Source: Buxus sempervirens (lineage: Eukaryota; Streptophyta; Magnoliopsida; Buxales; Buxaceae). From it: a stretch of 64,000 nt of DNA. Position numbers and translations under genes: made by a program. Within the stretch, counting starts at the first letter, position 1. Every line of letters begins with the position of its first letter. The DNA lies in contig OX387182.1 in the NCBI GenBank assembly GCA_947561395.2, positions 42,897,949-42,961,948 on the forward strand. Reading direction: 5' to 3'. Of the stretch, positions 5,157-63,863 are shown one piece after another. Under the pieces are notes generated by a model. That model made no database searches, had not been told where the DNA came from, and was given only the letters and a program-made list of their open reading frames with translations.

Positions 5157-5715
5157 AGGGTGTACATAAGGCATACTAGGGGGTACCTTAGTGTTACATA
5201 GAGGTACTTTAGTGATATTTGAGGGGTACCTTGGTATTTGAAGGGGGTTTAACTTAGTTATTCAAAGGGTTATACTTTAGGTATGTTTGAGGGGTGTACC
5301 TTAGTTATACAAGAGGGGTACCTTAGTTATAGAAGAGGTGTACCTTAGTTATACAAAGAGGGTACCTTAGTTATATAAGGGGAGTACTTTAGTTAAACAA
5401 ATGGGGTACCTTAGTTATATTGGGGGGAGTACTTTAGTTATACAAAAGGGATACCTTAGTTATATAAGGGGGTGTACCTTATGTAAAACATGGGGATACC
5501 TTAGGCAATACAAGGGTTGTACCTTAAGTAATACAAGGGGTACTCTAGGTAATAAAAGGGGAGCACCTTAGGCAATACAAGGGGTGTACCTTAGGTATAC
5601 AAATGGGGTACTTTAGGCAACACAATGGGATGCCTTAGGTATACAAGTGGGGGTACCTTAGGCAACATAAGGGGATACCTTAGGTATACAAGTGGGATAG
5701 CTTAGGCAAAAATGA
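5157..5715 (-). repeat. TACCTTAG minisatellite of family A LTR
   Basis: About 20 imperfect units of 22-28 bases are built on GGTACCTTAG(T/G)TATAC. The same satellite appears inverted near 8040-8158, 10971-11793 and 14293-14375 in the forward family A LTR. Units end in G-runs of different length. Confidence 0.85.
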
Positions 5716-9355: not shown

Positions 9356-9960
9356 TACCATATTTTACTTACTGAAATGGAAATCTGAATTAGCCAAGAG
9401 TAATTGGGTGTCTTAGGGGTTAAACCACTTCACTATTCACTTGTTTGGGAACTTTGGGATCTACTTTGCCTATGAAATTATTAGAGGAAAATTTAGTTAA
9501 CTTCTTAAAAGCTTCCAAGTTGAATTTAGGTTATCTATGAGTGTTGTGCCGGATGCCAAACCACTAAGAGTTACCAGTTACATTCACTCTGTTTTATACA
9601 CTATTTTGATTGAGGAGTTATTCTATTCTGGTTTCACGTGTTTGGAAACTGTAAATGTGTTGTGAGGATTTCCTTGGTATGAATGAATTGAGTTTTGTTT
9701 CCGAATGGCATGTGTTACGAAAATGAGAAAATGCTGAAAGTACTTGAGATACTGCTTGGTCCAGAGGGACAGGTGATGAACTGTGATGGGTTTTACATGA
9801 TGTGGAATGAATGGTTTTTCTTTGATATTGGTATTGGGATTATACGATGTTTTACTGTTTTGGTCTAGCTTGTCCTGGATCCAGAGTCTAAGCTTAGTAA
9901 TGTAATGTTATTTGTTGGTTGTTAGAATTGCATGGCCTTGTGTGTTGCCACGACCGGTGT

Positions 9961-10095
9961 AGAGCAGCCAGAAACCCTGAGTAGGCCTGGTTGTCAATGC
10001 AGAAACCCTGAGTAGGCCTGCATTGGATGACGAAACCCTGAGTAGGCCGTCATTTCAGAGTTTCCGAAACCCTGAGTAGGCCGGAACTGTGTACA
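9961..10095 (+). repeat. Stem-variable hairpin array, family C, cluster 1
   Basis: Four units carry the core GAAACCCTGAGTAGGCC. Flanking arms are AGCCA/TGGTT, CAATGCA/TGCATTG, ATGAC/GTCAT and AGTTTCC/GGAACT (one bulge). The core is constant while the arms change yet stay complementary. Confidence 0.85.
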
Positions 10096-10267
10096 TGGAG
10101 GTGTGGAGTGTCTACTTGGCATGTTTAATTTATCAACTAAACAATAGTCATGACATTGACCAATGTTGGTATTTGATTTTGTTTGACGTGATATGTTTTA
10201 TTCGCTGGTTTGTTGGTATTTATGGTTCATGGAATATTGTTTACCGATTATTGAGTATTGTACCTCC

Positions 10268-10395
10268 CGCCGGTGTAGAGCAGCCAGAAACCCTGAATAG
10301 GCCTGGTTGTCAATGCAGAAACCCGGGGAGTAGGCCTGCATTGGATGACGCAGTCATTTCAATATCCGAAACCCTGAGTAGGCCGGATATACATT
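10268..10395 (+). repeat. Stem-variable hairpin array, family C, cluster 2
   Basis: A second cluster begins with the same CCGGTGTAGAGCAGCC lead as cluster 1, so it is a duplication. It has CAATGCA/TGCATTG around a core with a CGGGGAG variant, and a new stem ATATCC/GGATAT. A duplicate of it lies at 21155-21285. Confidence 0.85.
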
Positions 10396-10713: not shown

Positions 10714-10783
10714 TGGGATATTCGTATCTCATTCCGTATTGTTTTGTTTTGTTTTCAGCTGCTCCTGGAGAGGACGATACTTG
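10714..10783 (+). other. UUCG hairpin and truncated micro-exon
   Basis: TGGGATA-TTCG-TATCTCA (10714-10731) is followed by GTTTTCAG and a short frame APGEDDTCR then TAG. The PGEDD start matches the micro-exons of other families, but the EDYYYP end is lost. Confidence 0.5.
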
Positions 10784-10970
10784 CAGGTAGTTACTTGGTC
10801 ATGTGAGTTTTATTTTAGTTTGGGGAATATTTTAGCGCACTCTGTTATATAGCTACTGTTGTATTCATGTTTTTCCTTCACTCTGATATTGCGATCCTGT
10901 GTTTTATAATAACCTCTGGAGACGAGTTATGGGTTTTTCATGTGACTCGGATCCGGGGCGTTACAACCTA

Positions 10971-11793
10971 GGTATACCTAAAGAACTCCCCAAGTACACC
11001 CAAGGTACCTCTCAAGGGTAGCCAAATTATCTCCTAAGAATACCTAAAGCACTTCCCAAGTATACCGAAGGTACCTCTCAAGTGTAGCCAAATTATCTCC
11101 TAAGAATACCTAAAGTATCCTCTAGCATTACCCAAGGTACCTCATGTATTACCTTAAGTACCCCCAAGTGTTAAAAGTATCCACTTGTATACCTAAAGTA
11201 AGCTCCCAAGTATATCTAAAGTATCCCTTTGTATACCTAAGGTACCCTCCCAAATGTACTTAGAGTATCCCCTTATACAAATAAAGTACACCCCCAATTA
11301 TACCTAAGGTACCCCTTTGTATTGCCTAAGGTACCCCATTTGTATACTTAAAGTACCCCACCTAAGGTACCCCACTTGTATACCTAAAGTACCCCCTTGT
11401 ATTGCCTATGGTACCCCACTTAAATACCTAAAGTACCCCCTTAATATAACTAAGGTACACCTCCTTATATAGCTAATGTACCCCTCTTATATAACTATGG
11501 TACGCCCTTTGTATAACTAGAATACCCTCTTAATATAACTAAGGTACACCCCTCATATTACACAGGGTACATCCCTTGTATTACCTAAAGATACCCCCTC
11601 ACATAACTAAGGTACACCCCTTATATAACTAAGGTACCCTTTGTATAACTAAGGTATACCCCTTTTATAACTAAGGTACCCTCTTGTATAACTAAGGTAT
11701 ACAACTTCTATAACTAAGTTACACCCCTTACATTACCTAGGGTACATCCCTTGTATTACCTAAAGGTACCCCCCTTATATAACTAAGATACAC
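10971..11793 (+). repeat. Family A minisatellite, forward LTR segment 2
   Basis: Imperfect units around CCTAAGGTACCCC and TATACCTAAAGTACCCC continue from 8158. This is host sequence between two inserted solo LTRs. The longest uninterrupted stretch is about 820 bases. Confidence 0.85.
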
Positions 11794-13546
11794 TATAAAA
11801 CCCCAGTTTTAGTAATTATTATTTATGAGAATTAGTTAATAAGTAAATAAATCTCTATTGGTAGAATTTTCATATATTCAAGGAGTAGGCGTAATTTGGG
11901 GATTTCACTAAAGTAAGAGCGGAAGGAGATAAATTAAGGTTAATAGTGTTTTAATAATAATTGTAATTATTATAGTGTTTAAATTTATTTTGTTTAAAGA
12001 AGTACTAATATATGTGATTAAGTGGAGAAGCAAATTAGTGATCGAATGGCTAGAGGACCTGTTCGTGTAAGGAGTTACATGGGTGAGCACCAGCAGGTTT
12101 GAGCGCCAAAAGGAGGTTATAAATAGTCGGCTCACTTCAGCGCATAGGTTTCGCACATATTGATCAAGCAAGGGAATTGCTGTCGAATTGAACCAAAACC
12201 ATTGGAGAATAGCAGAAGTACTCTTAGATGCTATTTCGATCGGAAATTGAAGTGGAAGAAGAACTGATCAAAGTCAAGGAGAAGCTGTTGGATTGAGCGA
12301 ATTTAAAAGGATTCGTCTAGATCACCTGCAGATCATCGAGGGGTTCAGGTGAGTACAAATTGATCTTAAAGTCGTGAGAAATTATAGGAGGAACGAATTG
12401 TGAACCAAATCTAATCGGATCTGGAATTTGTCTGTAGGAAATCTGAGATCAGAGGTTGTGTGGCAGACAAATTGTAACTCTGAGCTGCTGCCGTTAGTGA
12501 TCAGAGGAGAATTTATAGTTGCTGAGCAAGAGGAATTGCAAATCAGGTGAGTAGCATTTGATTTCCTCCGATTGTTGAAGCCGAATGCATGAGTTTAATC
12601 GAGATGGTATGTTGTTTGTATTATTGACGGCTGAAATTTGTTTTACGAGTAGATTTGTGGATACGGAGCTTGATCTTAGTGGAATTAATTTCGAATTGGT
12701 TCTAAAAGATTGTTAGAGGTGTGAGGAGTATAGATTAGCTGAGGTAAAGTGTTAATTTTAGGTCGGATATGGAGGAATTGAGTTAACAGAGGCTAAAACT
12801 TTTGTCGAAGAAAATTAGGGGGTACGCGTTGAGTGCCGCCAACTGACAAGGTTCAGCGGTACTTAGCGGATGTTATAAAAGTTGGATGCACGTACTGGCG
12901 CTTACTGCCGCCTACTAACTTGAAGTCAGCGCACCCACCAAATTCCCAGGTTAAGTGAGGCTGACTGTTTTTAGCTGATTTTCTCCAATCTAATTGTTCT
13001 CAAACCTATCTAGGAGTTGAATTAAGATATTATTAATACTTCTAAGTGATTGTAACCTACTGAGATTATTCCATCAATTATTGGGGGGATTTATGAGGAT
13101 TAAAAGTTAGGATTTAAGGTGCTTGCTAGTTGATAGTTGCTGGTTTGTTATGTTGAGTTCATGGTTTTGTTATTTCATGTTTTATTATTAATTTCCAGTT
13201 TGTGATACCTTTTAAATGGAGTTTTATCAGAAAGTAATGTCCTGAGAAGAATTTATTAAAATGATTTTCTTGAGTACATGCTTATACAAAAGGTTTGATT
13301 ATTGTTCTTTGGTTTAGAATCTCATTTGAAATTCCAAGAGTTATGGTTCTGGTCCTGAGGGACCCATGATAAAGTTGAGGTGTCTGGTCATGGTGGTACC
13401 AAAGGCTGGTAAAATTTGCTATCAAAGGTTGGTTTATGTGTTGAGTTATTTGTTTTGGTTTAACTTGTCCCGGATCCTAGACTAAGCTTAGTAATGTAAT
13501 GGTATTGCTTTATTGGTGTCATTGCATGGCATTGTGTGTTGCCAAG

Positions 13547-13690
13547 ACCGGTGTAAAGCAGCCAAAAACCCTGAGTAGGCCTGGTTGTCAATGCCGAAAC
13601 CCGAAGAGTAGGCCGGCATTGGATGACAAAACCCTGAGTAGACCGTCATTTCAGAGTTCCAAAACCCTTAGTAGGCCGGAACTGTGTACA
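13547..13690 (+). repeat. Stem-variable hairpin array with covaried stem
   Basis: The unit that is CAATGCA/TGCATTG in family C is CAATGCC/GGCATTG here, a matched A-T to C-G change on both arms. The last unit has a perfect AGTTCC/GGAACT stem. Core variants are CCCGAAGAGTAGG and CCCTTAGTAGG. Confidence 0.85.
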
Positions 13691-13965
13691 TGGAGATGTG
13701 GATGTTGCCTTAGCATGTTGATTAACTAATTTAAGCAATAGGCATGACATTGACCATTCGATGAATGTATGATATTGTTGTTGAACACTTGTTTTAAACT
13801 GCTATTGAGATTATGCGGAATTTGGGTTCTCGATTGTATTTCCAAGGTTCTTGTGCTTGTTTATTTGTCGTGGCATATTTTAGAACTGATATAACTATTT
13901 TGCATGCATGTGCTATTTGCTGAGATGTTCGTATTTCACTCGTTTTGTTTTGATTTTGTTTTCAG

Positions 13966-14042
13966 ATACTCGTGGTGAGGCAATCACTGGGGTAAATCCT
14001 ACTGGTCCTTATAGAGAGGAGGATTACTTTTATGCTCCCTAG
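13966..14042 (+). other. LTR micro-exon
   Basis: After TTTTCAG, an open frame begins DTRGEAITGV and ends YREEDYFYAP before TAG at 14040-14042. It is nearly the same as 51704-51780. The hairpin TGAGATG-TTCG-TATTTCA (13921-13938, two G-T pairs) precedes it. Confidence 0.55.
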
Positions 14043-18544: not shown

Positions 18545-21500
18545 TGTAAGACCCCAGTTTTGAGTAGAAAAAAAAAATATAATAATAATAAACAATATAA
18601 AATAGTAGATAAAATAAAATATATGCAAAAGTATGAACACATGGATTTATGGACAGGCTTAATCAAAATTTATTTATTGTTGGAGATTGTGGTCACTAGT
18701 TGTCAAAGAGAATAACCTAAGTGGCCGGAACATGTAGGGTTTCCAGTGGGCGAGCGCGCATAGGATCAAGGAGTTAAAGAGGGATCGGGCGGCGTATGTA
18801 TCGCAAGGGAAATATACCAAAAAGGGAAGTAGGGTTTGGGTTTAAACGAATGCTCGTATCATACTTATGGAAAGACTTTCGCTAGTCTCGTTATCTGGAG
18901 AACTGGGCGACTTGGCGATTGCGGCTGGTAATGGCGATTAGGGTTATACCTGTGAAGAACGAGGATCGCAAGGACTACTAGGAGGCTATTGGAGTCGGAG
19001 TTCTGCGGGTTATTTCTCTCGCGAGCAGAGGATCCGTTCGACTGCAGTTTCATCCTCGCGCACAGCCGGAAGTCGTGCTCGGCCGGTTGTCGAATAAGCT
19101 TTTGTTTTGGGGATTAAGCGCATACTGGTGAGTAGCACTGTTTTATAACTGGGTTTGTGTTTTGGGTTTTCTCGAGCTTATTCGGATGCATGTTTTGAAT
19201 ATTTAGTGATAGTATGAGGTTTTCTGTTTTTCTGGTTTTTCGGAAAGTTGCATGAACAGAGTCTCCGGATTGAAGTTTTAATTGAAAATGAAAGTGTTTA
19301 GATTAATTTCAAATATGGTTGGGAAGTGTTCTGGGAGTATTAGGAGTGTATTGGAGTAATTACAGACCTAAACCAACCGGCCAGACTTGTAGATCTTGGA
19401 ATAACAGAGAAACAAAAATCACAGGGGGTATCCGCCCACCTCGCGCTCACCGGCGCTCACCTAAGAGGTAGGCGCCCCGTTAAACACCACCCACCGCCCA
19501 CCTCGCGCCCAGCTGGCGCTCATCTCGCGCGAAGTAGAAAACAAGGCGCCCATCTCGCGCGAATCTCGCGCCCACCTCACGCCCATCTCGCGCTCATCTC
19601 ACGCTCACCTAGCGTCGGGTGAGCGGCAGGTCCATTTTTGACTGTTTCTTCACCGCCGACCGGCGCTCACCTCGCGCCCACCTCAGGAGGTGAGCGCATA
19701 GTCCAATACACTTGCCGAATTACAGAATTTGTTGAAAATAGCCCCTTAATTACATGAAAGACACTTAAGTAAATGTCCTGTGTATTTATTGCTCCATTTA
19801 CTTAAGTCTTTACATGTAAATAAGGTTTTACCCCCCATTTGGAACCAATAAAAATACTTCCAAGGTCTAATTCCCAGCCAATAAAAAGTCAACTTTCCAG
19901 TTCATGCCTAAATCCCGGTTTTTATCAAAATGCCCGGTTTGGGTTTAATACCCAGATGAGTGATTCAGGAGCCCAGAAAATTCTAGGAGATGTGTTTACC
20001 CACCAATAGACTACAACCAAAATTTGAGCCCGAAACTCCTTGTAGATTTGTCTAGAGAAATTATATACCAAAAGTCAACGTTTTTAACCAGACTTAGAAT
20101 ATTTTGAGGTCCGAAACTTTTTGTCTCAGAATTGATTGCTTTTTGGTATGGTGACCTTATAGGGGATCCTAAGACTATTCCACTCATCCAAAATGTGTTT
20201 CTAGGGTTTTATGACATTCATTTGATTGATTTGGATTATGAAAGCGAAATTTAGAATCTAGGAGCTGTTTTGCTGGATTATGTTTAATCGAAGTTTGGAT
20301 GCTGAAATCACTTCTGTATAATGTGCTTTATTCTGAAAGTCAGTTTTGAAACCATATTGTTTTGCTGAAATACCTCTACACTATTATGCTAGTTCACCTT
20401 TGAATGCACGGTGCACTTCAGGAATGATTTACTTGAACATGTTGATCTATATATATATCAGTTTCACATGATGGAAAATACATTGGGTTGATTTGCTAGT
20501 TTTATACTTACTACTGGTTTCACTTGTTTGGAAACTTTAAATGTATTGTAAGGATTTCCTTGGTATGAATGAATTGAGTTTTATTTCCAAATGGCATGTG
20601 TTACGGAAATGAGAAAATACTGAAAGTACTTGAGGTACTGCTTGGTCCAGAGGGACAGGTGATGAACTGTGATGAGTTTTACATGATGTGGAATGAATGG
20701 TTTCATTTTGATATTGGAATTGAGATTATACGATGTTTTACTGTTTTGGTCTAACTTGTCCTGGATCCAGAGTCTAAGCTTAGTAATGTGATGTTATTGT
20801 TGGTTGTTGAAATTGCATGGCCTTGTGTGTTGCCACGACCGGTGTAGAGCAGCCAGAAACCCTGAGTAGGCCTGGTTGTCAATGCAGAAACCCGGGGAGT
20901 AGGCCTGCATTGGATGACGAAACCCTAAGTAGGCCGTCATTTCAGAGTATCCGAAACCCTGAGTAGGCCGGAACTGTGTACATGGAGGTGTGGAGTGTCT
21001 ACTTGGCATGTTTAATTTATCAACTAAACGATAGTCATGACATTGACCAATGTTGGTACTTGATTTGGTTTGACGTGATATGTTTTATTCGCTGGTTTGT
21101 TGGTATTTATGGTTCATGGAATATTGTTTACCGATTATTGGGTATTGTACCTTCCGCCGGTGTAGAGCAGCCAGGAACCCTGAGTAGGTCTGGTTGTCAA
21201 TGCAGAAACCCGGGGAGTAGGCTTGCATTGGATGACGCAGTCATTTCAATATTCGAAACCCTGAGTAGGCCGGATATACATTTGGAGGCGTGGGCATGGT
21301 TATGAGAAGACTTGGTGTTATGTGACATTGGTATATCTGGAATTATATCTTGAGATACAAAATTATGCTTATTTGCTATGTTGTTGCCAATTAATCATTA
21401 TTTATCGATATCTTCGGGATTGGAAACGGATTGTTATTGCTTGATTTACCTGATGGTTTTCCGCACTGATATGAATTGGATTATTGAAGTTTAGTCGGAT

Positions 21501-21849: not shown

Positions 21850-22369
21850 CAGTCACTGACAGGAACTACAATAATCTGACTAGGGAAAAGTAATGGAACA
21901 GCCGAAATAAGTCAGTTTGGTTTCTCATCTAATTGAGAATTTGTTTAATTGAGAATTCCAACTACCTACAGCAAGCAACATCTAATTGAGAATTTCTTTC
22001 AACATAATTCATGTCAAAACATAGTCAGTTTGGTTTCTCAGTCCAACGTTTTCAGCAAACAACCAAACACCTTCAGCGAGTAAACAATCCCCAACCATCC
22101 AATAAAATACATAGTTCTGATAGATTTGGTTTGTATGTTGGTCTTCACCAAAGATACCAAAGCAAACAGACGCAGACAGTCGCTGTCAGACGCAAACAGA
22201 CGCTGTCAGAAGCAGACAGACTCACGACGGAAACCAAACAGAGACCCAATATAAACTCAACAATCATCAATTGAAATCAACAATAATGAATCGATCAAAC
22301 ATAAATCAAAAGCAAGGCAAAAAACAAGCATTAGTCGATCAAACAGAAAAATTGCTATTTACAAGATTT

Positions 22370-22720
22370 CGCAAATCCCACGCCCAGACAAAACCAGTCG
22401 CCCAACCCTCTTCTCTTCTTCCCTCTTTCTTTTCTTCTTCTCTTTTCTCTTCTCCTTCTCTTCTGCGGCTAAACCCCCAAACGAACACCCCTTCTCTTCT
22501 TCCTCTTCTTCTTTCCCCACGTTTTATTCTCCTCCTTCGCCTCCACTCGTTTTCCCCCTTTTTCATTTCTCCTTCTTCTTACGAACAACCAGTATGGACG
22601 AACCCCTCCCCTCTTTCTTCTCTTCCTCTTTTCTTATTGTTCTTCTTCTTCCTCCTCCGTCCCCCCTTCTTTCTTCTGCGTTTTTCGTTTTCTCAATTTC
22701 TTCTAGCCCTTAACAACCCA
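22370..22720 (-). repeat. Polypurine tract (minus strand) of family B LTR
   Basis: About 350 bases are almost pure C/T on the plus strand. The same tract is at 28060-28400, 41650-41995 (purine on plus) and 48185-48480, always just before the donor-like site. It yields long Lys/Arg/Glu- or Ser/Leu/Phe-rich frames that are not genes. Confidence 0.8.
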
Positions 22721-22931
22721 AACACCAAAACCCCCAAATGCACAAATCGTGAATGGCTTTTGGTTTTTTTTTTCTTTTGGTTTAAACCATTGAACCATTT
22801 GAACCGGTTCAATTAAACTAAACCAACCTATTAAATCATTGGTCTAATTGATTATTCTTACTTAATTTATTTAATTAATTAATCTTAATTAAAGTTTTAT
22901 TTCTTTTTTTTTTTCCAATTCCGGGGTTTTA

Positions 22932-24678
22932 TGGTGGAAGGGTTTCATGGCAAGGAGAGGCTAAAGAGCATAGTTTGGTGAGTTGGGGAGTTGAGATTGG
23001 TGGAGGCTGAAGCTGTTAGGTTGTCTCCAAGCCAAAATCCAGCTAAGCTAAAGAGGTTTCTTGCTTATTGAGTCTCAAACAAAGTGATTCAGGTAGGTAG
23101 TAACTTTGGAAAAGATTTTTATCGAAATTACTTTGGTTTTGTCAAGATTTAGTGCTGTTTTGGTTAAATTTCCCCTTGTACCCGAATTTCTGTGTTATTG
23201 TTTTGGTACTTTGATGTTGAGAGTTTATGTTGGTAGGATTTGGTTTTGTATATGAAGTAATTTAGTTAATGTGTACAACAATTTAGTCTCCTGGTTTGTT
23301 TAGAAACATTAGTGTTGATTGTGCTTTAAAAATACATAGCTCATGTTATAACTATTAGTAAACAGATCCGATTTTTGACCCTCCAAAAACGAGCTAAACC
23401 TGATCCAAAGAGTCTAGTTTCCAATGCATCAAACAGTGCTCAATTTCAAGTTTTTTAGAAAAATTTATGACAGTTTTACTAAAGGTGGTTAAAATAGCCG
23501 CGAAACCCAATGGACAGAAATCATCAATTTTTCTCAATTTTTATTGCAATACCCTGAGTTCCAATTGATCCTAAATCACTTCCATTCAACTACAAACACC
23601 CTAAACTAAATTTTAGACTACTAATATGAATTTTAACCCAAAGATTCCAAGCCCTCGCAAGCCACCGAAGTCTTTACGATTTTGAGACAGCAGAATAGAG
23701 TGGCTTCTATATGTTAACTTCCAATTGTTTATTTTCTGTTTTCCTTTTCTAAATTGTTATTCTTCATATAGATTCAACCATTATAGAGTCAATCCCTTCA
23801 ACTTCATATTTACAAATACCACCTTTCAATCTTACTATGTTACCATGAATGTGGGATTCATTAGTTATGATATGATGAATAAGACAAGTAATCAGTTATT
23901 TTCCTGTCCTGGTTATGTTTTCTTAGTGTCTTGGTCTATTGTGGTCTAGTAGGCATAAACGGGTATGGATCCATTCCTAGGCTAGTAAGTTTATGGTATT
24001 GGGATGAGGTAACACAGGCCCAGTGTGGCTCCCTCATCAGATATGTCGGATATGGTGTTGGGATAAAGTAACACAGGCCCAGTGTGGCTCCCTCATCGGA
24101 TATGGTGTTGGGATGAAGTAACACAGGCCCAATGTGGCTCCATCATTGGATATGGTATTGGGATGAGGTACATAGGCCTAGTGTGGCTCCCTCATCGGAT
24201 ATGGTATTGGAATGAGGTACATAGACCCAGTGTGGCTCCCTCATCGGATATGACATTGGAATGAGGTACATAGACCCAAGCGTGGTTCCCTCATCAAGTT
24301 TAACATGAGATTCGTACTGGATTGGTGTTGTATTTGGGTTGTACTTGCCAACCCCAGGGAGGGGGTATTCCGTAGGGAGATTGCCAAGCTTTCTTCTGGT
24401 AAATCGTGAGATGGAAAAAACTGGACTTATTTTTTTATCTGATTTATAAACTTGCCAATGACATGAGTCCTACTTGCTATGTTAGACTATTCTTGCCTCA
24501 TTGTATTTCTTTAAACTTTGTGCTTGTGCATGGTGTTTATGTTATTTTAAATGCCTGTTTTATTAGATATAGCACGCTTATGATAAAGATGCTCCATGTG
24601 GTTTGAGCATAGTTTTCTGATAAAAACTTATATCTTGTTGTATTTCAAATTGCATATCATGGTTTAGTATAATACTGT
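22932..24678 (+). mobile_element. Forward family B-like LTR body
   Basis: A donor-like CAGGTAGGTAG is near 23090, followed by a region homologous to 42800-44100 of the 3' LTR at 41421-45057. It includes the minisatellite at 23985-24300 with GATGAGG..CCTCATC units. The body is cut at 24678 by another LTR start. Confidence 0.6.
23985..24300 (+). repeat. Minisatellite of hairpin units (about 48 bases)
   Basis: About six diverged units contain GGGATGAGGTA, CAGGCCCAGTGTGGCTCC and CCTCATCGGATATGG. The ends GATGAGG and CCTCATC are complementary, so each unit can fold. It is homologous to the 55-base units at 43686-44015. Confidence 0.8.
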
Positions 24679-26559: not shown

Positions 26560-28555
26560 GCTGTTCACCTACCCTTCAATCCTTAGGCCATTCCGCCTTT
26601 CGAGATACCTTAGGCTCATTGCCTTTCTTACCTAACAAGAAGCATAATCTTCAATTTCCAATTACGAATCTCAAATCATTTTATCGAACTAAATCGTTAA
26701 CGGAATAAGGTAAAGAATAATTTTATAAATCAATTTTTAAACAAATTTAGAGATATTCACGGTTGGTTTGATTTTGCAGTTTACTCTGTAAAACTGGTTC
26801 TAACTAGTTAATTGAAAACTAAACCTGATCAAATCAATAAAGAATTTGTGTACATATTATATATCGTTGGAAAGCTCTACAAGTCTAGTTTCCAATGCAA
26901 CAAACAGTTCATAATTTGGAGTTTCCTACAGGAAGTTATGGCTGTTTTACTACAGATGGTTACAAACAGCCGCGAAACCTACTAGACGGAAATCATCAAC
27001 TTTTCTGGATTTTTCTTGCAATACCTTGAGTTCCGATTGGTCCCAAACCAATTCCATTTAACTACAAATACCCTAAACTAAATTTTAGACTACAATTATG
27101 AATTTTTATGCGAAGATTCCTAGCCTTCGCAAGTCACCGAAATTTTAGACTATTAACCCCACCTTAAGTCTCTAACAGAAGGTAGCCTGACAGAGGGCTG
27201 CTATGAGGTAATTTCAAATTGTTTCCCATCCCAACCAAATATCCCCTAACAATGTCATTCCCATCACAACCCTCATCAGCTAAAATACAACCCATAAAAG
27301 AGTGAGCCACCAACAATCCAATTTCAAAAGGCCCTAAGAGCATAACAGCAACCTCATATCAATTCAAGCCATCACCAAGACAACCCAAATTGAATAACAA
27401 TCCTGCAGATTTTTTACTAACTCAACCTCCCAGGTAAGAGGATAGCTAAGTCATACAAAGTATAATAACAAAGAACCTAAATCAGCACCTATTGTGATCA
27501 TACCATCTTATGCTAAATCAGAACCTAAAGCAGCATTTTCTCATGCCAAATCAAAATCTAAAATCAGAACCTAAGTTAAACTCTCATGCCCATTTAGAAC
27601 CTAAAATCAGAAATTAAATCCACACTAAACTAAAACAGAATCATCTTACCCCATGCCATCAAACCCAAATGAAACTAAATCAAATTTGGAGAACCTCAAA
27701 ACAAACTCTGAACCTAAACTCTCATGCCAAATCAGAATTTTTATCGACTAGTTTTTCAACCAAGGAAACCCCAGACGCGTAGCGACTGGTGCTTTTGGTC
27801 TTGGTCTCTCAAGCCAAACGACCCAACACCTTTTGCAAACAAACAATAATTTACAGCAAAACAGAAACATGCTAATCAATCGACAAACAGAAACTAAAAG
27901 AGAAGAAAAACCAAACAGTAGTCAATCAAACTCATGCTCAATCGACCAACAGCAACCAACAGAAATCAAACAGATGTCGAAATCAACAAACAGAAATTGA
28001 TCAACAAACAGAAACAAATAGAAAAACCATAACGATCGATCAAACAGAGGAAAACGTGCTACTTACCAGATTTCGCAGAAACCCACGCCCAAACCCTCTT
28101 CTCCTCTACGTTTTCTTCCTTTCTTCTCTTCCTCTCTTTTCTTCTTCTTCTTTCTTCTTTCTCCTCTCTACGATTTCTTCCTCTCTTCTCTTCCTCCCTT
28201 TTCTTCTTCTTCCTTTCTTCTTCTCTTTTCTCTTCTCCTTCTCTTCTGCGGCTAAACCCCCAACGAACGCCCCCTTCTCTTCTTCTTCTCTTCTTCTTTT
28301 CTTCCTTCTTCTTCCACTCGATTTCCCCCTTTCTTCTTTCTTCTTCCTCAGGCGATTTCTCCTCCTACAATTTCCTTTCCCTTTTTCGTTTTCTCGTTTT
28401 CGGATAACCCTTAACGCCCATTTGAGATGAAAGAACCTACGGGTTCTTTCATCTACAAAAGTCTTATTTTATTTTATTTAAAAAACTTGAACCGATTCAG
28501 CATAATGAACCAACCAACCATCCATTAAACCACTAAACTAACCAATAACCCAGGT
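26560..28555 (-). mobile_element. Family B LTR fragment, reverse, truncated at both ends
   Basis: It aligns by eye with 46630-48600 of the complete reverse family B LTR (AGGCCATTCYGCCTTTCG at the left; polypyrimidine tract 28060-28400 and GAACCGATTCA at the right). The LTR start and about 1 kb of the LTR end are missing, and no TSD is visible. The donor-like site reads CTG|GTAAGTAGC on the minus strand near 28062. Confidence 0.7.
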
Positions 28556-29089
28556 TATATCAAGATATTAAGTGCTAAAACACTGAAATCTGCTAGAGAA
28601 GTGTTATAAGGTGCTGTAGATTTCTCCAGCACATATAACTTTGTTATGCAACCTGAACTTGGGAAATCAATTCGAGGGTTAGTTAGGGATAAGCAAACAG
28701 GAGTTGAGTAAATCTGGGATTGTTGAAGTAAGTGCATATATAGGTAATGTAAAAAGAAATAGGATAGTTAAAGGTAAGCTTCAAGGCTGTATATAAAACA
28801 AGATGTTTGGAGTATAAACCATATGTAGGAGCTACTATTTGGGCATGAATCATATAATACCAGATTTAATTAAATAAGAGAATTAAGGTTCTGTTTTAAT
28901 TTCGGAATTGCCGGTTTAACCAAAACTTAACAGCTTTACAAACTTTTGGTTTATAAAAAGGGAATTTTATGCAATACTTTGAAAAGAAACTTGAAATCAG
29001 ATTATTTTGGATAAATATGATTAATTGGTTTTCTCCATGTACTTGAATGATGTTTTTGGGATTGTTGTTGGATTGATGGTCATCTTACC

Positions 29090-29772: not shown

Positions 29773-29895
29773 TGGGATAATCATATCTCATTACGTTTTG
29801 TTTTGTTTTCAGATCCTGGTGAGGACGATCTTGGCGGGGTTGAGCCTGTCGCTGACTATCCTGAGTATAGGGTCGAGGACTATTTTGTTGAGTGA
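29773..29895 (+). other. Short hairpin plus micro-exon, family F
   Basis: TGGGATA-ATCA-TATCTCA is at 29773-29790. GTTTTCAG then leads into a frame that starts DPGEDDLGGVEP and ends YRVEDYFVE with TGA at 29893-29895. It is one of the best-preserved micro-exons. Confidence 0.55.
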
Positions 29896-40001: not shown

Positions 40002-41408
40002 GAAATTGATCCAACCTAGGAATTAGAAGCCTTATGATGGTTTATGGGAATGAGTGTACGCTAGATAGACATCCTATTTTTTAGTGTGTTGTGTCTAATT
40101 TGCTATAAGAAGTTTGTTATGGTTTTCCTCCCACCTAGCATCAATTTGAATTAAATGGATACTATGACTATGAAATGTTGTTAATTTCAGAAGTTGGTTT
40201 TAGAAAAGCACGTTGCTTTGTTTTTATGAAATTTTATTTGAGAAACACTTTGAAACTTCATGATGATGTGAGTTGGTCCTGAGTGACCCCGTGTTACGTA
40301 ATGTACACATTTGCGCTAGATGTTGTATCACCTAGCGAATGTTGCTATTTGGAACTGGAATTCTGTAATTATCGAGATACCATAATTAGACTAGACTGAT
40401 TGTTTGTGAGTTTACAGATGCGTTTCCAGGTTTACTATCTTTAAGTTTTATTTTCAAGAATCTTTTCTTTATTGCGATTCAGTGATTATTTTTCTTATTA
40501 TCTTATATGATTACTGTGTCATAATCCAATTGTAGTTGGTTGTACTGAGGTAGTGTGAGGCATCGGCCGATGCTGAATATTTACCTAGGTAATTAACCTT
40601 TTGCAATTGGGAGTGTGTAATGAATATATTAAACAGGATTATAAGAAACTATGAAGTTACGTGTATGATTTGTGGGTACATAGTATTATGGCGTTAATGT
40701 AGGAGAAAACTTCCATGATTTTTCTCCCAACCTTCATATAGCTGCAGATATACTGAAGGATTGGTGAGGGTAGAGTCATGGTAATCGCTTTTCAATTGTT
40801 TTTGCAATTAGTAGTGTGTGTAAATTCTTTAAATTGAAAAAAAAAATTTTAATTATCAATATTTCAATCATTCATGGAAAGACGATGGGTAGACCCTGTA
40901 GGACTGCATCTGATCCTCTAGTTGAGAATGATTCCGCTGGTGGACCAGCACATTAGTACACTCATTAGTACACTCATGTCTGAGGTGTGTTGGTTTGGTA
41001 TATTCTCTATTATAGCTTATTTTGTTGGTGCATATCCCACCAGGAAGGATATGATTTTGTTGGTATGTACCCCACCAGAAGGGGTATCTATCTTTATGAG
41101 TTTGGAGCACACCTTCTTCTGAAATCTTCTGCTTGTGCTGTGCGTGTTGGTTGGTACCACCTTATTGGGATTTGTTTTGGTTGCTATGTATCCCAGCAAG
41201 AGAGGTATCATTTTTTTCTTATTGTGGTCAATTTATATTATTATCTGACTTTATGATTTTGAGCATCATGTACTTTGATTTATTAGCATGTGTGTGCGTG
41301 CTATTGTGGTACCTTCATTTGAGATTATCTTATTATCGTGTATTTCCCCGAGAGTCTTTCCTGGTACTAGGTATCATGATGTGAATTTCGAGGACGAAAT
41401 TCTTTTGT
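40002..41408 (+). mobile_element. Interior of non-autonomous element
   Basis: No coding frame above background. It has a 14-base palindrome GCATCGGCCGATGC near 40562, and hairpins with a shared CACCAG loop at 41031-41053 and 41068-41086. The end reads TTCGAGGACGAAATTC (near 41385-41405). Confidence 0.7.
41031..41086 (+). repeat. Two hairpins with shared CACCAG loop
   Basis: CATATCC/GGATATG (7 pairs) encloses CACCAGGAA at 41031-41053. TACCCC/GGGGTA (6 pairs) encloses ACCAGAA at 41068-41086. A third, weaker unit with loop AGCAAGA is near 41188-41208. Confidence 0.7.
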
Positions 41409-41420
41409 AGGAGGGTAGGA
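41409..41420 (+). other. Polypurine tract of non-autonomous element
   Basis: AGGAGGGTAGGA directly precedes the 3' LTR start. This is the expected plus-strand primer site. Confidence 0.8.
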
Positions 41421-41649
41421 TGTAAAACCCCAGAATTTGGAAAAAAAAAATAAGACTTTAATTAAGGTTAATTAATTAAATAAATTAAGTAAGAATAATC
41501 AATTAAACAATAAAATTTATTAGGTTGGGTAAGTTTAATGGTTGGTTCAGTTTAAGTGAACCGGTTCATTTGTTTAATGGTTCAATGGTTTAAAAAAAAA
41601 ACCCCCCAAAGCAATTCACGTTTTTCATTTGGGGTTTATGTCTTTGGGC

Positions 41650-41995
41650 GTTAGGGTTTGAGAAAGAAGGGGAGGAATCGTGGAAGAAGGAAAGGGGGTT
41701 TTGGTTCGTCCATGAGGAGGATTCGCAGGAGAAAAAAAATAAAAGACGAAGAAGAAGAGGAAAGGAGACGAAGGAAGGAGAGGAAGAAGAAAAGAGGGAG
41801 AGGAAGAAGGAGAAGAAGGGAAGCAAGGGGGCGTTCGTTGGGGGTTTGGCCGCAGAAGAGAAGGAGGGGAGAAAAGAGAAGAAATCGAGCGAAGGAAAGG
41901 AAGAAAACGAGTGGAGGAGAGGAAGAGAAGAAGAAGAAGGAAAAGGCAAAAACGTGGAGGATAAAGGAGAAGGAGAAAACGAGGGTTTGGGAGAT
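41650..41995 (+). repeat. Polypurine tract
   Basis: About 345 bases are nearly all A/G on the plus strand, just upstream of the donor-like site. It could form triplex DNA or act as a splicing enhancer. Long basic or acidic reading frames here reflect composition only. Confidence 0.8.
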
Positions 41996-43685
41996 TGGGC
42001 ATGGATTTTGGTGAAATCAGGTAAGTAGCATTTTTTTTTCTGTTTAATCGGCTACTGTTTGAGATTTCTGTTGTTCGATCACTGATTATTTGATTTCGAT
42101 CAATTCATTTTGATTTCGATAGCTTACTGTTGAGTTCGTATTGGGTTTCTGTTTGGGTTCTTTTGGCTTCAGTCGTGTGACTGTCTGCGTGGTTCCTTTG
42201 GCTTCACTGAATACAACCAAATCGGTGAAACTGTCTATTTTATTGGGTGTTTGGGGATTGTTTGTTTGCTGAAAGTGTTTGGGGTGGTTGCTGAAGTTGT
42301 TGGGTTGAGAAATCAAACTGACTATGTTTTGACATGAATTGTATTGATATGAAATTTCAATCAAAAGTTGCTTGCTTAAGGTAGTTGAGATTAAGTTCAT
42401 GTTGGGTTTGGTTAATTTGACTCGTTTTGGCTATTCAACTACTTTTCCCCATTCCGATTATATTAGTTTCTAATAGAAATATTAAATTTTGATAAGATTA
42501 TTTATTAGTAGATTGTGGAGGATGATTTGAATCCGATTTGGGGTTTTTTCGACATCTCGGGTTTATGTTCAGAATTCAGACTTGTTATATTATGCTTTCT
42601 ATGAATGTTCGGTTTAGATTTGTTATTTTTCAAACTTGTTATTGTTCAGATTTGTTAGGTTCTGACTTTAGTCTTTGATTTGGCATAAGAAAATTTAAAT
42701 TGTATTTTGGTAGCTATTTGATCTTAAGTCTGCCTTGGATTAACGTTTTGTTGATATAACTTAGGATGAAAACTGCTGGTTATCTGAACAGGTGTGGGAA
42801 GGGACTTTAGCTTAAGTTGAGGAATTGTGTGTTGGCCTATAAATTAGTTAGATTATATGGGGTATAGAATTTTGACGAAGCTCCAATGCTTATCCCTTTG
42901 ATGTTCTTTGTGCTGAGAGTTTTAATTTAGGTTTTTATTTGGCATGAGAGTGTTAATTTAGGTTTTGATGATAGGTTTTGATTTGGCAGGAAAAAAATAC
43001 TGATTTAGGTTCTGAAATGGGGTTAAGAAAATGAATCTTGTCTAGGCTACCTTCTGTTAGAGGAACGTAAGATGAGGTTAGTAGTCTAGAATTTAGATGG
43101 CTTGCGAAGGCTAGGAATAGTCGCGTAAAAATTCCTAATTGTAGTCTAAAATTTAGTTTAGGGTGTTTGTAGTTAAATTGAATTGGTTTGGGACCAATCG
43201 GAACTCAAGGTATTGCAAGAAAAATCCTAAAAAGTTGATGATTTCCGTCCAGTAGGTTTCGCGGCAGATTGAAACCACCTGTAGTAAAACAGACTTAACT
43301 TCCTGTAGGAAACTCTGAATTACGAACCGTTTGTTGCGTTGGAAACTAGATTCATAAATATTTCCAATGATATATAGCATGAATTCTCATTATTGATAGA
43401 TTAAATCAGGTTTAGTATTTAATTAACAAGTAAGAATCAGATCTGCAGAATAAACAATTACTGCAAGTCAAGGTGTATATTTTGTGTTGGTGTTCTCCAC
43501 TCATGAAGTTGGCTTAATCCTAATTTGTTCAATGTTGTTATTGGAAACAATGTATGTGCATATGAATGTAGGATTTCACTAGTTGTGATACGAAGAATGA
43601 GACAACAATAATCAGCTATTTTCCTGTTGCTGTTATGTTTTCTTAGTGTCGTGTTCTATTGTGGTCTAGTAGGCATAATCGGTAT

Positions 43686-44015
43686 TGTGTTGTGTTGGGA
43701 TGAGGTAACACAGGCCCCATGTGGCTCCCTCATCGGGTATTGTGTTGTGTTGGGATGAGGTAACACAGGCCCTATGTGGCTCCCTCATCGGGTATTGTGT
43801 TGAGTTGGGATGAGGTAACACAGGCCCCATGTGGCTCCCTCATCGGGTATTGTGTTGTGTTGGGATGAGGTAACACAGGCCCTATGCAGCTCCCTCATCG
43901 GCTCATCGGGTATTGTGTTGTGTTGGGATGAGGTAACACAGGCCCTATGTGGCTCCCTCATCGGGTATGGTGTTAGGATGAGGTACATAGACCCGACGTG
44001 GTTCCCTCATCAAGT
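43686..44015 (+). repeat. 55-base minisatellite of hairpin units
   Basis: Six units start at 43686, 43741, 43796, 43851, 43915 and about 43970. Each contains GATGAGG, ACACAGGCCC, ATGTGGCTCC and CCTCATC. GATGAGG and CCTCATC pair. One unit has a 9-base duplication of CATCGGCTC. Confidence 0.9.
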
Positions 44016-46449: not shown

Positions 46450-48825
46450 GTACGCAAGTGGCCCGGGGTATTAACACGACAAGCCAACACTAACGCACGA
46501 TCTAGACGGACTGTGGATCCACGACTTTTTATGCGGCCTAAACTCGTATAAGAATTACCCATGCAATTATTTTTACCGAACAAAACCTGAAAAATTAACT
46601 GCCCAAAGTATAACTCAAACCAAATGAACCTTGTTGTTCACTTACCGTAAATCCCTAGGCCATTCTGCCTTTCGGGATGCCATAGGCTTATTTGCCTTTC
46701 TCATCTAACAAGAAGCCTCAGCTTCGATTGCCAATTACAACTCGCGAATCACTTTATCAACCCAAATCATTAACGACTAAAGGTATAAAATAATTTTATA
46801 AACCAATTTTATAAAATATCCACGGTTGTTTTGAAATTGTCGTTTACTCTGCAGATTGAATTCTAACTAGTGAATTATATGCTAAACCTGATTTAAGCTA
46901 TAAGGAATTGGTATGCGTGCTATACATCGTTGGAAAACTCTATGAATCTAGTTTCAAACGCAACAAACGGTGCTAAAATTGGAGTTTCCTACAAGAAATT
47001 ATGGATGTTTTACTACAGGTGGTTATAACCTGCCGCGAAATTAAATGGACGGAAATCATCAAATTCTCATGATTTTTCTTGCAATACTTCGAGTTCCAAT
47101 TGGTCCTAAACCAATTCCATTCAACTACAAATACCTTAAACTAAATTTTAGAATGCTAATATGAATTTTTATGCGAATATTCCTAGCCTTCGCAAGCCAC
47201 CGAAATCTTACACAGGTTTAAGACAGCCTAACAAAAGTGTTGCTATGTGTTAATTTCAAAGTGTTTCTATACTACAAATCAACTGTCTAACACAGGTGCT
47301 GTCTCCGGGCATTATTACATTGGCTCATCAACGAGAAATGAGCAAAGCATCCATATCCCATTCCAAAGTCTAATAGAATCCATAGAAGACCCTAAATCCC
47401 CTATCAATTTCATTCCCATCACAACCTTCATCAGCTAAAATACAAACCCATGAAAGAGTGAGCCACCGAAAAACCAATTTCAGAGTGCCCTAAAAGCATA
47501 ACAGTAACCTTATATCAATTCAAGCAACCGCCAAGACAACCCAAATTGAATGACAATCCTACAGATTTTACTAGCTCAACCTCCTAGGAACAAGGATAGC
47601 TAAGCCATATAAAGTATAATAAACAGAGAACCTAAATCAGCACCTATTGTGATCAAACCATCTCATGCTAAATCAGAACCTAAATTAGCATTTTCTCATG
47701 CCAAATCAAAATCTAAAATCAAAACCTAGATTAGAGTTCTCATCACAATTATTACACTATAGAAGAATCCAACAATAAAATTCTAGCAATAGAAATCCCA
47801 TCACAAATTAAGTTTAAGTCTGTCGATCACCCCAAATAATGACTGACTAACAAAAATTTCAACCCGACAGAATAATCTGTTCAATCCATTTCAATCAATT
47901 TGTTTCAATCAATTCCATACAACCCTAACTAAATTCATGGAGAGAACTGCAACTCCTGGATGCAGGTTTTGTTATATTTTGGTGAAGTCAAAAGAACCCC
48001 ACGCAGACAGTCGCACGACTGTTCTCTTGGGCATTTTCTTACAACATCAAAGAACATGAAGAGAAATGAAAAGAAGTCAACAGAAACCAATCGGAAACAA
48101 CCACAATCGATTAAACAGCGGAAAATTTTATGCTACTTACCGATTTTTTTGCAGAATCCACGCCCAGACAGAACCAATCGTCTAAACCCTCTTCTCGTCT
48201 TCTTCCTTTCTTTTCTTCTCCTCTTCTTTCTCTTTTCTCTTCTTCCTTTTCTTCCCCACGTTCTCTTCCTCTCTTCTCCTCCTCTCTTCTTCTCCTCTTC
48301 CACTTGTTTCTTCCTTCTTCTTCTTTTTTTTCTTTTTTTTTCTTGTTAAACCCCAACAGCACAAACAAGGACGCCCCTTCCCTCTTCTTCTTCTCTTCTT
48401 TCTCCTTTCCCCTTCTCTTCCTCCTCTCCTCCACGTCTTCTTCCTCTTGCAAATCTCCCCTTTCTTCTGCGATTTCTTCCTTGCCGCACCCTTGACGACC
48501 CAACACCCCAAAACCCCAATTGCTCAAATCGTCAATGGGTTTTGGTTTTTATTTTATTTATTTATTTTTTCTTAACCAATGAACCATGAACCATAAATCC
48601 ATTGAACCTAAACCAATCCATTGAACCAAAACCCCCTTAACCCACTAATCAAACCACCCCATTAAACTCATAACCCTTAAACCAATAACCCATTTAATAT
48701 ATTGAACCCAATTGGCTTTACTATTATTATTATATTATTTATTATGATTTTTTTTTCCAATTAATCCAATTAACTTATTAAGTCTTTATTTACTCGTATT
48801 TAAATTTTCAGGGTCTTACATAGAG

Positions 48826-49538: not shown

Positions 49539-51298
49539 TGTAAGACCCTGAATTTTGTGAGTATTTATTTATTTATTTAGTTATTTATTCTGATGTATAA
49601 ACTGTGTTTATCAGGTTATTTTGTGGTTTGAGGGCTTAGCCCATACTCATATGTACAGGCGTTATATAGCCATTTTTCCGAAAAATCGTAGTATTATCAT
49701 TGGTATTATTAAGGTGTAGTTATGTGATTATTAACGCGAATAGATGCTGAACATGTAGTATCTTCGGTGGGCGAGCATGCATAGGATCAAGGGGTTAAAA
49801 GGGTTGATCCACCGGCGTATACATCTCGCAAGGTAAGTGTTAAATGAGCAAATAAGGGAAAGTAGGGTTTTTAGTTTTAAACGAAATACGCGTATACTTA
49901 CGGAAATATTTTCGTTAAGTCTGGAGATCAGGCGAACTCGCGATTTCGGCTGGAGTCGCGACTAGGGCTTCTGTTCGTGAAGAACCATAAATCGCAAGTG
50001 CTGGAAGAAGGAGTTCGGAGCTGAAATTCATTGGGTTATTTCTCTCTGCTCGAGAAGATTAGTTTCGGTAGACTTTTCATTCGCGTGCGTGGCCGGAGAA
50101 GTGATCGGCCGAGGTTTTACCATTCGAGAATAAGCACACTCAGGTGAGTAGCACTGTTTTACAACTGGGATTGTGTTTTTCTGTTTCTCTCGAGATTATC
50201 TTGATGCATGAGTATATATAAAGTGATTGTGTGAGTTTTCTGGGTTTTTTCTGGTTTTCGGAAAGTTGCATAAACAGAGTCTCCGGATTGAAATTATAAT
50301 TGAAAATGAAAGTGTTTAGATTAATTTCAAATATGGTTGGGAAGTCTTCTGGGAGTATTAGGAGTGTACTGGAGTAGTTACAGACCTTCACAAACCGGCC
50401 AGTCATGTAGATCTCAAAATAACAGAGAAATGAAAACCACAGGGGGTATCCGCTCACCTCGCGCTCACCGGCGTTCACCTCGGAGGTAGGCGCCCCGTTA
50501 ATAATGACCTACCGCCGATCCCGCGCCCACCTCGCGCTCATCTCGCGCGAAGTAGAAAACGAGGCGCCCATCTCGCGCGAATCTCGCGCCCACCTCACGC
50601 CCATCTCGCGCTCACCTAGCGTCGGGTGAGCGGCAGGTCGATTTTGCCCTTTTTCTTCACCGCCGACCGGCGCTCACCTCGCGCCCACCTCAATAGGTGA
50701 GCGGCAGACCTATTTTGCTTACCGAAATGGAATTTCTGATTTGACCAAGAGTATTTGCATTACTTAGGGGTTAAACCACTTCACTATTCACTTGGTTAGG
50801 AACCTGGGAAACCATTTTGCCTATGAAATTAATAGAGGAAAAATTTGTGAACATCTTATGAGTTTTAAGTTGAGTTTAGGTTGCTTATGAGTATTGTGCC
50901 GGACACCAAACTAGTAAGAGTTACCAGTTACTTTTCCTTGTTCTATACACTGTTTTGATTGAGAAGTTCTTGTATTTCTGGTTTCACTTGTTGGAAACTT
51001 TATACGTATTGAAAGGTTTTCTTTGGTATGAATGGATTGAGTTTTACTTTCATATGACTTGTGTTATGGAAATGAGAAAATACTGAATGTACTTGAGGTA
51101 CTGCTTGGTCCAGAGGGACAGGTGATGAATTGTGATGAGTTATTACATGATGTGGAATGAATGGTTTTGTTTTGATATTGAAATCGAGATTATACGATGT
51201 TTACTATTTTGGTCTAGCTTGTCCTGGATCCAGATGTTTAAGCTTAGTAATGTGATGTTATTGTTGGTTGTTGGAATTGCATGGCCTTGTGTGTTGCC

Positions 51299-51445
51299 AC
51301 GACCGGTGTAGAGCAGCCAGAAACCCTGAGTAGGCCTGGTTGTCAATGCAGAAACCCGGGGAGTAGGCCTGCATTGGATGACGAAACCCTGAGTAGGCCG
51401 TCATTTCAGAGTATCCGAAACCCTGAGTAGGCCGGAACTGTGTAC
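51299..51445 (+). repeat. Stem-variable hairpin array
   Basis: Four GAAACCC..GTAGGCC units with arms AGCCA/TGGTT, CAATGCA/TGCATTG and ATGAC/GTCAT, and a weaker last stem. It is the single-cluster version of the family C array. Confidence 0.85.
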
Positions 51446-51660
51446 ATGGAGGTGTGGAGTGTCTACTTGGCATGTTTAATTTATCAACCAAACGATAGTC
51501 ATGACATTGACCAATCGATGTGTTATTGTATTTAACTGAGATGTGATTTGTTTGATTTGAACTTGGGAAATTGATGTTGGTTGTTTAAACGTATTGTAGT
51601 GTTGTCGATGCATAGTTTTAAAAGATGATTCAACTATTTCTGCATGCATGTGCTACTCGC

Positions 51661-52029: not shown

Positions 52030-52041
52030 TGGTATCAGAGA
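52030..52041 (+). other. Primer binding site, initiator Met tRNA
   Basis: TGGTATCAGAGA lies four bases after the LTR end. It matches the initiator Met PBS except at the last base. Confidence 0.88.
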
Positions 52042-54485: not shown

Positions 54486-54486
54486 G

Positions 54487-63752: not shown

Positions 63753-63863
63753 ATCTGGGTATGCATAAACGGTTGAAACCTCCTGATCAACTCGGAATTG
63801 GATGGGGATAGCTCCTGGTGGAAGAAGCGCAGTTGGTACAGCCTCCTTTGATGCAGGTGCCTC

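What the first reader, a model, noticed from the sequence alone, without database searches (positions are those of the whole stretch)
9961..10395. Tandem hairpins with a constant core and variable, complementary stems in family C LTRs
Seven units in this LTR carry GAAACCC..GTAGGCC, each between different arms that still pair (CAATGCA/TGCATTG, ATGAC/GTCAT, ATATCC/GGATAT, and others). In the related LTR at 13547-13690 one stem has changed to CAATGCC/GGCATTG on both arms. A paired change at a fixed core points to selection on the folded form. Copies are at 20838-21285 and 51299-51445. I know of no named LTR feature like this.
Basis: seen in the sequence. Interest (0 to 1): 0.88.

Follow-up and report, generated by a model that had tools for sequence, protein, structure and literature searches.

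The report
Constant-loop hairpin arrays in retrotransposon LTRs
A plant jumping gene carries clusters of small hairpins that share one loop while their stems differ yet still pair, which suggests that the loop is read by a partner not yet known.

Summary
The LTR at 9961-10395 has two arrays of neighbouring hairpins with core GAAACCC..GTAGGCC between different, complementary arms; related arrays lie at 13.5, 20.8, 21.2 and 51.3 kb. The source genome (676.5 Mb) holds 11,368 exact matches of the core pattern; the reversed pattern has none. A primer-site-like sequence follows one LTR, and a related element continues into a gag-protease frame of Ty3/gypsy type. Among nine hand-chosen stem types, own-arm pairing is the single best of 362,880 assignments, also with the H1 type left out. 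Within the family, pairing and double-change covariation exceed a tree-aware null (0-1 of 600), but single-arm changes far outnumber paired ones and internal branches show no extra preservation. The constant part is probably the apical loop, about NNGAGU(A). My best reading: a selected RNA hairpin cassette whose loop is bound in trans, perhaps for packaging or dimerisation. Transcript, strand and ligand are untested; folding energy does not decide the strand. Nearest published feature: Sirevirus LTR palindromes, which conserve the stem instead. New variant of a known kind.

The parts
9954..9961 (+). 5' arm of the closing helix P1 of array 1, CC(G)GTGTA
   Evidence: pairs with TACATGG at 10092-10098; 95.0% (outer part) and 91.1% (inner part) of cells paired in 56 arrays
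9964..9994 (+). hairpin H1, GCAGCCAG-core-CTGGTTGT (two G.U pairs if read as + strand RNA)
9995..10025 (+). hairpin H2, CAATGCAG-core-CTGCATTG
   Evidence: one pair is A-U/C-G/U-G in 23/22/3 of 56 arrays, unpaired in 5, gap in 3
10026..10054 (+). hairpin H3, GATGACG-core-CGTCATT
10059..10088 (+). hairpin H4, AGT(T)TCCG-core-CGGAACT
   Evidence: the minimum-energy fold of the whole array does not form it
10092..10098 (+). 3' arm of closing helix P1, TACATGG
10280..10310 (+). array 2, H1, core GAAACCCTGAATAGGCC
10311..10343 (+). array 2, H2, core GAAACCCGGGGAGTAGGCC
10344..10357 (+). array 2, H3 with core deleted (GATGAC-GCA-GTCAT)
   Evidence: core lost in 8 of the 11 second-array rows, this one included, present in L033, L083, L085
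10363..10390 (+). array 2, H4, ATATCCG-core-CGGATAT
10714..10731 (+). downstream hairpin-like module TGGGATATTCGTATCTCA, followed by a T-rich tract and TTTTCAG
   Evidence: 38 distinct module rows in window and loci
10950..10965 (+). LTR 3' end GATCCGGGGCGTTACA
13542..13701 (+). related array with H2 stem CAATGCC/GGCATTG
20834..20994 (+). array 1 of the LTR ending at 21849
21152..21293 (+). array 2 of the same LTR
51298..51458 (+). array of the LTR ending at 52025
52030..52041 (+). primer-binding-like site TGGTATCAGAGA four bases after the LTR end; sets the sense strand as +

Best explanation
It is a tandem cassette of constant-loop hairpins in the 3' part of Ty3/gypsy LTRs, upstream of the primer site. 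I think it acts as single-stranded RNA. Each hairpin is a scaffold (any complementary arms of about 6-9 bp, a predicted asymmetric internal loop, a short predicted inner CC/GG helix) that presents the apical loop NNGAGU(A). Four hairpins side by side give multivalent binding. The likely partner is the element's own Gag or a host RNA-binding protein, or the loops of a second RNA copy, so the likely job is recognition of genomic RNA (packaging or dimerisation). Shown: the hairpin-forming sequence, the core constancy, the unlike but complementary stems, the position before the primer site. Inferred: that the region is transcribed, that RNA and not DNA is the working form, the partner and the role.
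For: 11,368 genome matches of the core pattern against 0 reversed. Same core in the main array (H1-H4), the second array, a 118-bp tandem repeat (L050, L084) and a two-hairpin LTR family (L087, L088, L093), each with other arms that pair. Own arms are the unique best of 362,880 assignments among nine hand-chosen types; this also holds without H1 (1 of 40,320), for six positions only (1 of 720) and without demanding the closing pair. In 100 of 111 genome matches chosen only by core and 3' GGK, third base G or T on the 3' side goes with pyrimidine or purine on the 5' side (60:2 against 13:25, Fisher 5e-12; 57 distinct arm pairs 27:2 against 11:17, 1.6e-5; shared ancestry not removed). Tree-aware null on 70 arrays: percent paired 95.4 against 89.7 (0 of 600), double-change covariation 0.0226 against 0.0063 (0 of 600, 1 of 600), fraction of stem changes that keep pairing 0.528 against 0.452 (4 of 600). 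The inner helix varies with pairing kept: ACC-CUGAGU-GGU, ACTA-TGAG-TAGT, GGTC-CTGAGT-GACC. In 14 typed stems, 20 G.U but 9 A.C oppositions on the sense strand, the A.C all in the last one or two positions (seven of the 14 are H1 variants).
Against: No transcript, probing or binding data. Whole-array folding is unexceptional (other families too). Folding energy does not favour the sense strand: H1 does (lower in 23 of 36), H2-H4 favour the antisense (39 of 47, 24 of 28, 38 of 44), whole arrays are even (35 of 70). Internal branches show no extra pairing preservation and the number of pairs with a double change is not above the null (81 of 600). C-to-T exceeds G-to-A in C-G stem pairs by cell count (61/959 against 34/932) but little by tree branches (55 against 46), and not on internal ones (8 against 12). 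Some copies have unpaired arms after core-to-core deletions (L001, L027, L060, L089, L090).
Confidence: 0.42

Rival explanations
1. DNA-level cis-regulatory boxes: the core (which resembles the plant telo-box AAACCCTA, recalled) is a transcription-factor site and the arms form dyads, as proposed for Sirevirus palindromes.
For: Position inside an LTR; array form; published precedent in Sireviruses (PMC2829016 section 9). Folding energy does not single out the sense RNA.
Against: A double-stranded binding site does not need changing arms to stay complementary; the core itself is not a palindrome; wobbles inside the typed stems are G.U on one strand.
Confidence: 0.2
2. Neutral by-product: stems are perfected by template switching (quasipalindrome correction) during reverse transcription or replication and arrays grow by slippage; no selection on the fold.
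For: Would make double changes in one step; internal branches show no excess of preserved pairing; single-arm changes are common; core-to-core deletions show that the arrays recombine.
Against: Does not explain why the same core persists in LTRs whose flanks and arms differ. U.G states exist beside re-paired ones (GATGAT/GTCAT 88, GATGAT/ATCAT 12 of 100 listed of 133; counted by eye), though U.G may also be plain decay after insertion.
Confidence: 0.2
3. Single-stranded DNA role: minus-strand strong-stop cDNA may copy this part of the LTR, and the hairpins influence strand transfer or priming.
For: The arrays lie upstream of the primer site within the LTR; the antisense strand is predicted to fold better for H2-H4.
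Against: G.U wobbles in H1 variants become A.C on that strand; the R/U5 boundary is unknown.
Confidence: 0.1
4. Hairpin precursors of small RNAs that help the host silence the element, as argued for maize Sirevirus palindromes.
For: Published link between LTR palindromes and small RNAs (PMC10760457, passages).
Against: Each stem is only about 6-9 bp, too short for a Dicer product by general knowledge; it would not explain a constant loop. No small-RNA data were examined.
Confidence: 0.05

Closest known systems
Sirevirus LTR repeated palindromic motifs (RM boxes), Bousios et al. 2010, PMC2829016 (outline, passages and section 9 seen)
   Same: Arrays of short inverted-repeat motifs inside plant LTRs, varying in sequence between families
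   Different: There the stem (CGG-CCG) is conserved and the spacer is short; here the loop is conserved and stems vary. Sireviruses are Ty1/copia; here the gag-protease frame is of Ty3/gypsy type.
Paired GACG-tetraloop hairpins (SL-C, SL-D) of gammaretrovirus leaders, PMC5874298 (passages)
   Same: Neighbouring hairpins with the same apical loop near the 5' end of the genome; loop-loop contacts aid genome dimerisation
   Different: Other loop, two hairpins, outside the LTR (recalled); here four in an array inside the LTR, and no function shown.
[quoted passage not shown] 2016 (not read; cited in PMC10760457, passages)
   Same: Hairpin-forming LTR region linked to small RNAs
   Different: Copia elements; no constant loop described in the passages seen.
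Conserved stem-loops in long R regions of LTRs, PMC3601003 (passages)
   Same: Residual R-region conservation attributed to stem-loops
   Different: No tandem constant-loop units mentioned in the passages seen.

Membership tests
Sirevirus RM boxes | Host element is a Ty1/copia Sirevirus | tested here: not met
   The frame after the primer site of a main-family element (L066) has PF08284 and CCHC; among the 120 listed homologues the named ones are plant proteins, several named Ty3 gag-pol. RT of this family was not recovered.
Sirevirus RM boxes | CGG-CCG palindromic core conserved | tested here: not met
   Stems vary; where a triplet recurs it is CCG...CGG, and H1 and H3 lack it
Sirevirus RM boxes | At least eight copies, clustered in the upper half of the LTR upstream of a TATA box | tested here: inconclusive
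   Seven core units in this LTR, in its 3' part; promoter not located
Ty3/gypsy (Metaviridae) LTR retrotransposon | LTR ends, tRNA primer site, gag-protease of Ty3 type | tested here: met
   (different copies of the family)
Ty3/gypsy (Metaviridae) LTR retrotransposon | RT-RNase H before integrase; chromodomain if Tekay/Del | not tested
   pol was not recovered for this family
Retrozyme / hammerhead-bearing LTR element | Hammerhead ribozyme in the LTR | tested here: not met
   No Rfam family reached its gathering score in the window
Gammaretrovirus-like packaging/dimerisation hairpins | Loop bound by Gag/NC or by another loop; needed for packaging | not testable with these tools
   Needs RNA and protein experiments

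The most novel reading that the evidence does not exclude
A large group of plant Ty3/gypsy LTRs carries an RNA recognition cassette defined only by a loop: stems are free to change as long as they pair, copies are multiplied side by side, and the same loop is reused in otherwise unlike LTRs, possibly inside an LTR intron so that only unspliced genomic RNA carries it. It would be a plant retrotransposon packaging/dimerisation signal.
Probability: 0.25. Interest if true: 0.82.

Novelty: new variant of a known kind. Interest (0 to 1): 0.6.

Why it matters
How plant Ty3/gypsy elements select their own RNA is, to my knowledge, little known. A loop repeated at more than eleven thousand places of one genome, with stems that can be broken and re-paired, is a ready experimental handle. 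It would also warn against reading every LTR palindrome as a DNA-level promoter element.

Tried and rejected
Hammerhead or other known RNA family: no Rfam family reached its threshold in the window. Coding reading of the core (ETLSRP): units carry 17 or 19 bases of core and the listed frames are short. Hexaloop CNGAGT hairpins elsewhere in the window: 0 of 52 (+) and 0 of 40 (-) occurrences have a stem of 5 bp or more, so the loop alone is not enriched there; in L050, seven of ten CNGAGT sites in 601-1300 have stems of at least 4 bp, against 31 of 650 positions for any hexaloop, but these are tandem copies. Literature: nine searches; no title or abstract start in the listings describes this motif, and the core string itself gave 0 papers. 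I saw passages or sections of four papers only; the library holds open-licence papers only. A planned four-cell genome count at one H3 pair was completed only for the U cells (133 copies). Covariation was first measured on A1, 39 hand-picked units (129 distinct rows), mostly chosen with paired arms, so its scores are biased and I do not lean on them.

In some searches, and in one of the two runs, the 11 second-array rows were scored with first-array pairing for H4 and P1, which lowers their score; I therefore also ran the 59 first arrays alone (percent paired 96.6 against 90.1, 0 of 600; double-change covariation 0.0171 against 0.0036, 1 of 600; kept fraction 0.529 against 0.453, 14 of 600; internal branches 9 kept, 12 broken, single changes). 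The scoring gives H1 arms zero with every other type, so I repeated it without H1 and with a free start; the result stands.

Full report
Observation. The LTR at 9961-10395 holds two arrays. Array 1 has four hairpins with at most a few bases between them, within a possible closing helix; array 2, about 300 bp on, has three core-bearing hairpins and one stem whose core is gone. Related arrays lie at 13.5, 20.8, 21.2 and 51.3 kb. The core pattern GAAACCCNNNGTAGGCC occurs 5670 + 5698 times in the 676.5-Mb source assembly; the reversed control has no match.

Where it sits. The LTRs end with GATCCGGGGCGTTACA; at 52025 this is followed by gaga and TGGTATCAGAGA, a primer-site-like sequence for initiator Met tRNA (motif recalled), which sets + as the sense strand. 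The LTRs at 10965 and 21849 are not followed by such a site. The LTRs are at least about 2.2 kb long (L006 against window 49823-52025). In a close relative (L016), the region beyond the LTR (L066) has an open frame with CCHC and PF08284 protease; its 120 listed homologues are, where named, plant proteins, several named Ty3 gag-pol. A plant Ty3/gypsy element is therefore my identification; the lineage (Tekay/Del suspected from the LTR ends, recalled) is untested.

Sampling. I used 16 distinct places, 34 regions covering 24 of the 100 listed places and 8 of the 100 listed. The first two sets come from the first 19 Mb of one contig; the last two were picked for odd cores or stems. Sampling is not random.

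Constant loop, different stems. Around the same core I found: H1 GCAGCCA/TGGTTGT, H2 CAATGC(A/C)/(T/G)GCATTG, H3 GATGAC/GTCATT, H4 AGTTCC/GGAACT, the second-array H4 ATATCC/GGATAT, the second-array H1 forms GCAGCATCAT/ATGGTGTTGT, GCAGCATTG/CGATGTTGT, GCAGCATCG/CGGTGTTGT and CAGTACCGA/TCGGTGTTG, whose core is shortened or altered, a 118-bp repeat CCA(GC)ATTCC/GGAATTGG with a paired variant ATTCT/AGAAT, and a second LTR family with CGAAG(T)CC/GGCTTCG and TGRTGACC/GG(T)TCATCA. For nine types, own-arm pairing scored 64 against a mean of 31.1, the single best of 362,880 assignments. The types were picked by me because they carry the core; H1c and H4b hold the same positions as H1 and H4. Without H1, H1c and H4b it is still the single best of 720, and a scoring that needs no closing pair agrees.

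Covariation. A2 has 56 arrays; with the stated structure 96.9% of cells pair, against 95.1% after shuffling partners within columns and at most 38.0% when partners are slid; 36 cells carry a change on both sides against 13.1 shuffled; pairs with such a change, 6 against 3.4, are reached by 35 of 500 shuffles. With 14 more arrays (70), a null that redistributes the substitutions of each tree branch over columns gave: percent paired 95.4 against 89.7 (0 of 600), double-change covariation 0.0226 against 0.0063 (0 of 600 and 1 of 600 in two runs), double-change cells 88 against 11.7 (0 of 600), kept fraction of stem changes 0.528 against 0.452 (4 of 600); the number of pairs with any double change, 9 against 6.1, is not significant (81 of 600). 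Much of the double-change signal is one H2 pair (A-U or C-G), which may be one old event. Against my reading: 78 single changes keep and 72 break a pair while only 6 double changes keep it and 3 break it; internal branches, where selection should show, give 15 kept and 21 broken single changes against 63 and 51 on terminal ones, although double changes are 4 kept and 0 broken inside, 2 and 3 at the tips. The structure was taken from the window copy, which favours percent paired.

A less circular sample. Of 111 genome matches of core + GGK with a free 5' arm (a fixed end letter class on each side), 100 were listed. Base three of the 3' arm predicts the class of its 5' partner (60:2 against 13:25). 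Pairs 1 and 2 pair in 97 and 99 of 100; pairs 5 and 6 in 80 and 73; pair 8 in 24. Mean stem length is 6.8 against 5.9 when arms are shuffled (maximum 6.23 in 500). The copies share ancestry, so p-values are nominal; among 57 distinct arm pairs the table is 27:2 against 11:17. At an H3 pair, 133 genome copies have U on the 5' side; by eye, 12 of the 100 listed have the re-paired A and 88 have G, i.e. U.G.

What is constant. In A1 (biased, one slipped row) the invariant columns are ACC and, in GAGTAG, the first A, the T and the last G. In second-array H1 forms the inner helix changes but still pairs (ACC-CUGAGU-GGU; ACTA-TGAG-TAGT), and in L050 short GGTC-YKGAGT-GACC hairpins recur beside the core. 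This points to the apical loop NNGAGU as the constant element, with the caveat that such hairpins are not enriched elsewhere in the window.

Strand. In 14 typed stems there are 20 G.U and 9 A.C oppositions on the sense strand, the A.C all in the last one or two positions (half of the types are H1 variants). But predicted energies favour sense for H1 only and antisense for H2-H4, and whole arrays are even. C-to-T exceeds G-to-A in C-G stem pairs by cells but little by branches. Strand is open.

Mechanism. The arrays lie upstream of the primer site. If transcription starts upstream of them, they are leader RNA. A module follows: a GCATGCATG stretch, a hairpin-like TGAGATA-TTCG-TATCTCA (not more stable than shuffles as tested), a T-rich tract and TTTTCAG, then an exon-like frame with more synonymous differences than the other frames (pairwise codon differences 150 synonymous to 128 other, against 48:203 and 73:181; 10 distinct sequences). 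If that is a true 3' splice site, spliced RNA might lose the arrays and genomic RNA keep them, the logic of a retroviral packaging signal. This is inference.

Known relatives. Sirevirus boxes (section 9 of PMC2829016) are the nearest LTR feature but conserve the stem and belong to copia elements. Gammaretrovirus GACG hairpins (passages of PMC5874298) are the nearest in working principle. I file it under neither.

Noticed in passing
window about 10745-10775, 13966-14042, 29811-29895, 51702-51780; minus strand near 3.0 kb: After TTTTCAG many LTRs carry an exon-like frame ending in peptides such as DTRGEAITGVDPAEAYREEDYYYLP or DPPGEPRTEVEVEGELKYRPEDYYHP, alike in unlike LTR families, with an excess of synonymous differences in one family; in other copies the frame is short or different.
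   Followed up: partly
window 23990-24295 and 43681-44010: Another LTR family has its own tandem hairpin-like array, GGGATGAGG..ACACAGGCCC..TGTGG..CCTCATC; the one stretch tested (24050-24160) did not fold better than shuffles.
   Followed up: partly
window 22250-22980, 27950-28680, 48060-48790 (+) and 41400-42200 (-): Pyrimidine-rich stretches share a motif near ATGCTACTTACC, which on the opposite strand reads as a splice-donor-like GGTAAGTAGCAT (three of the four exactly over TGCTACTTACC); possible antisense transcript.
   Followed up: no
window 54384-56846: Open frame of 820 aa with a plant mobile domain (PF10536) downstream of the LTR that ends at 52025.
   Followed up: no
window 58173-63863 (-): Open frame of 1896 aa, gag-pol-like, with a second RNase H-like domain (RVT_3) after RT-RNase H.
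   Followed up: no
G000:C1:8882523, 8943550, 9004578: Three alike copies at 61.0-kb spacing (L016, L018, L020), probably a tandem segmental duplication.
   Followed up: no
window 5158-5709 and 10972-11793: Long 22-bp-period tandem arrays, alike in opposite orientation.
   Followed up: no
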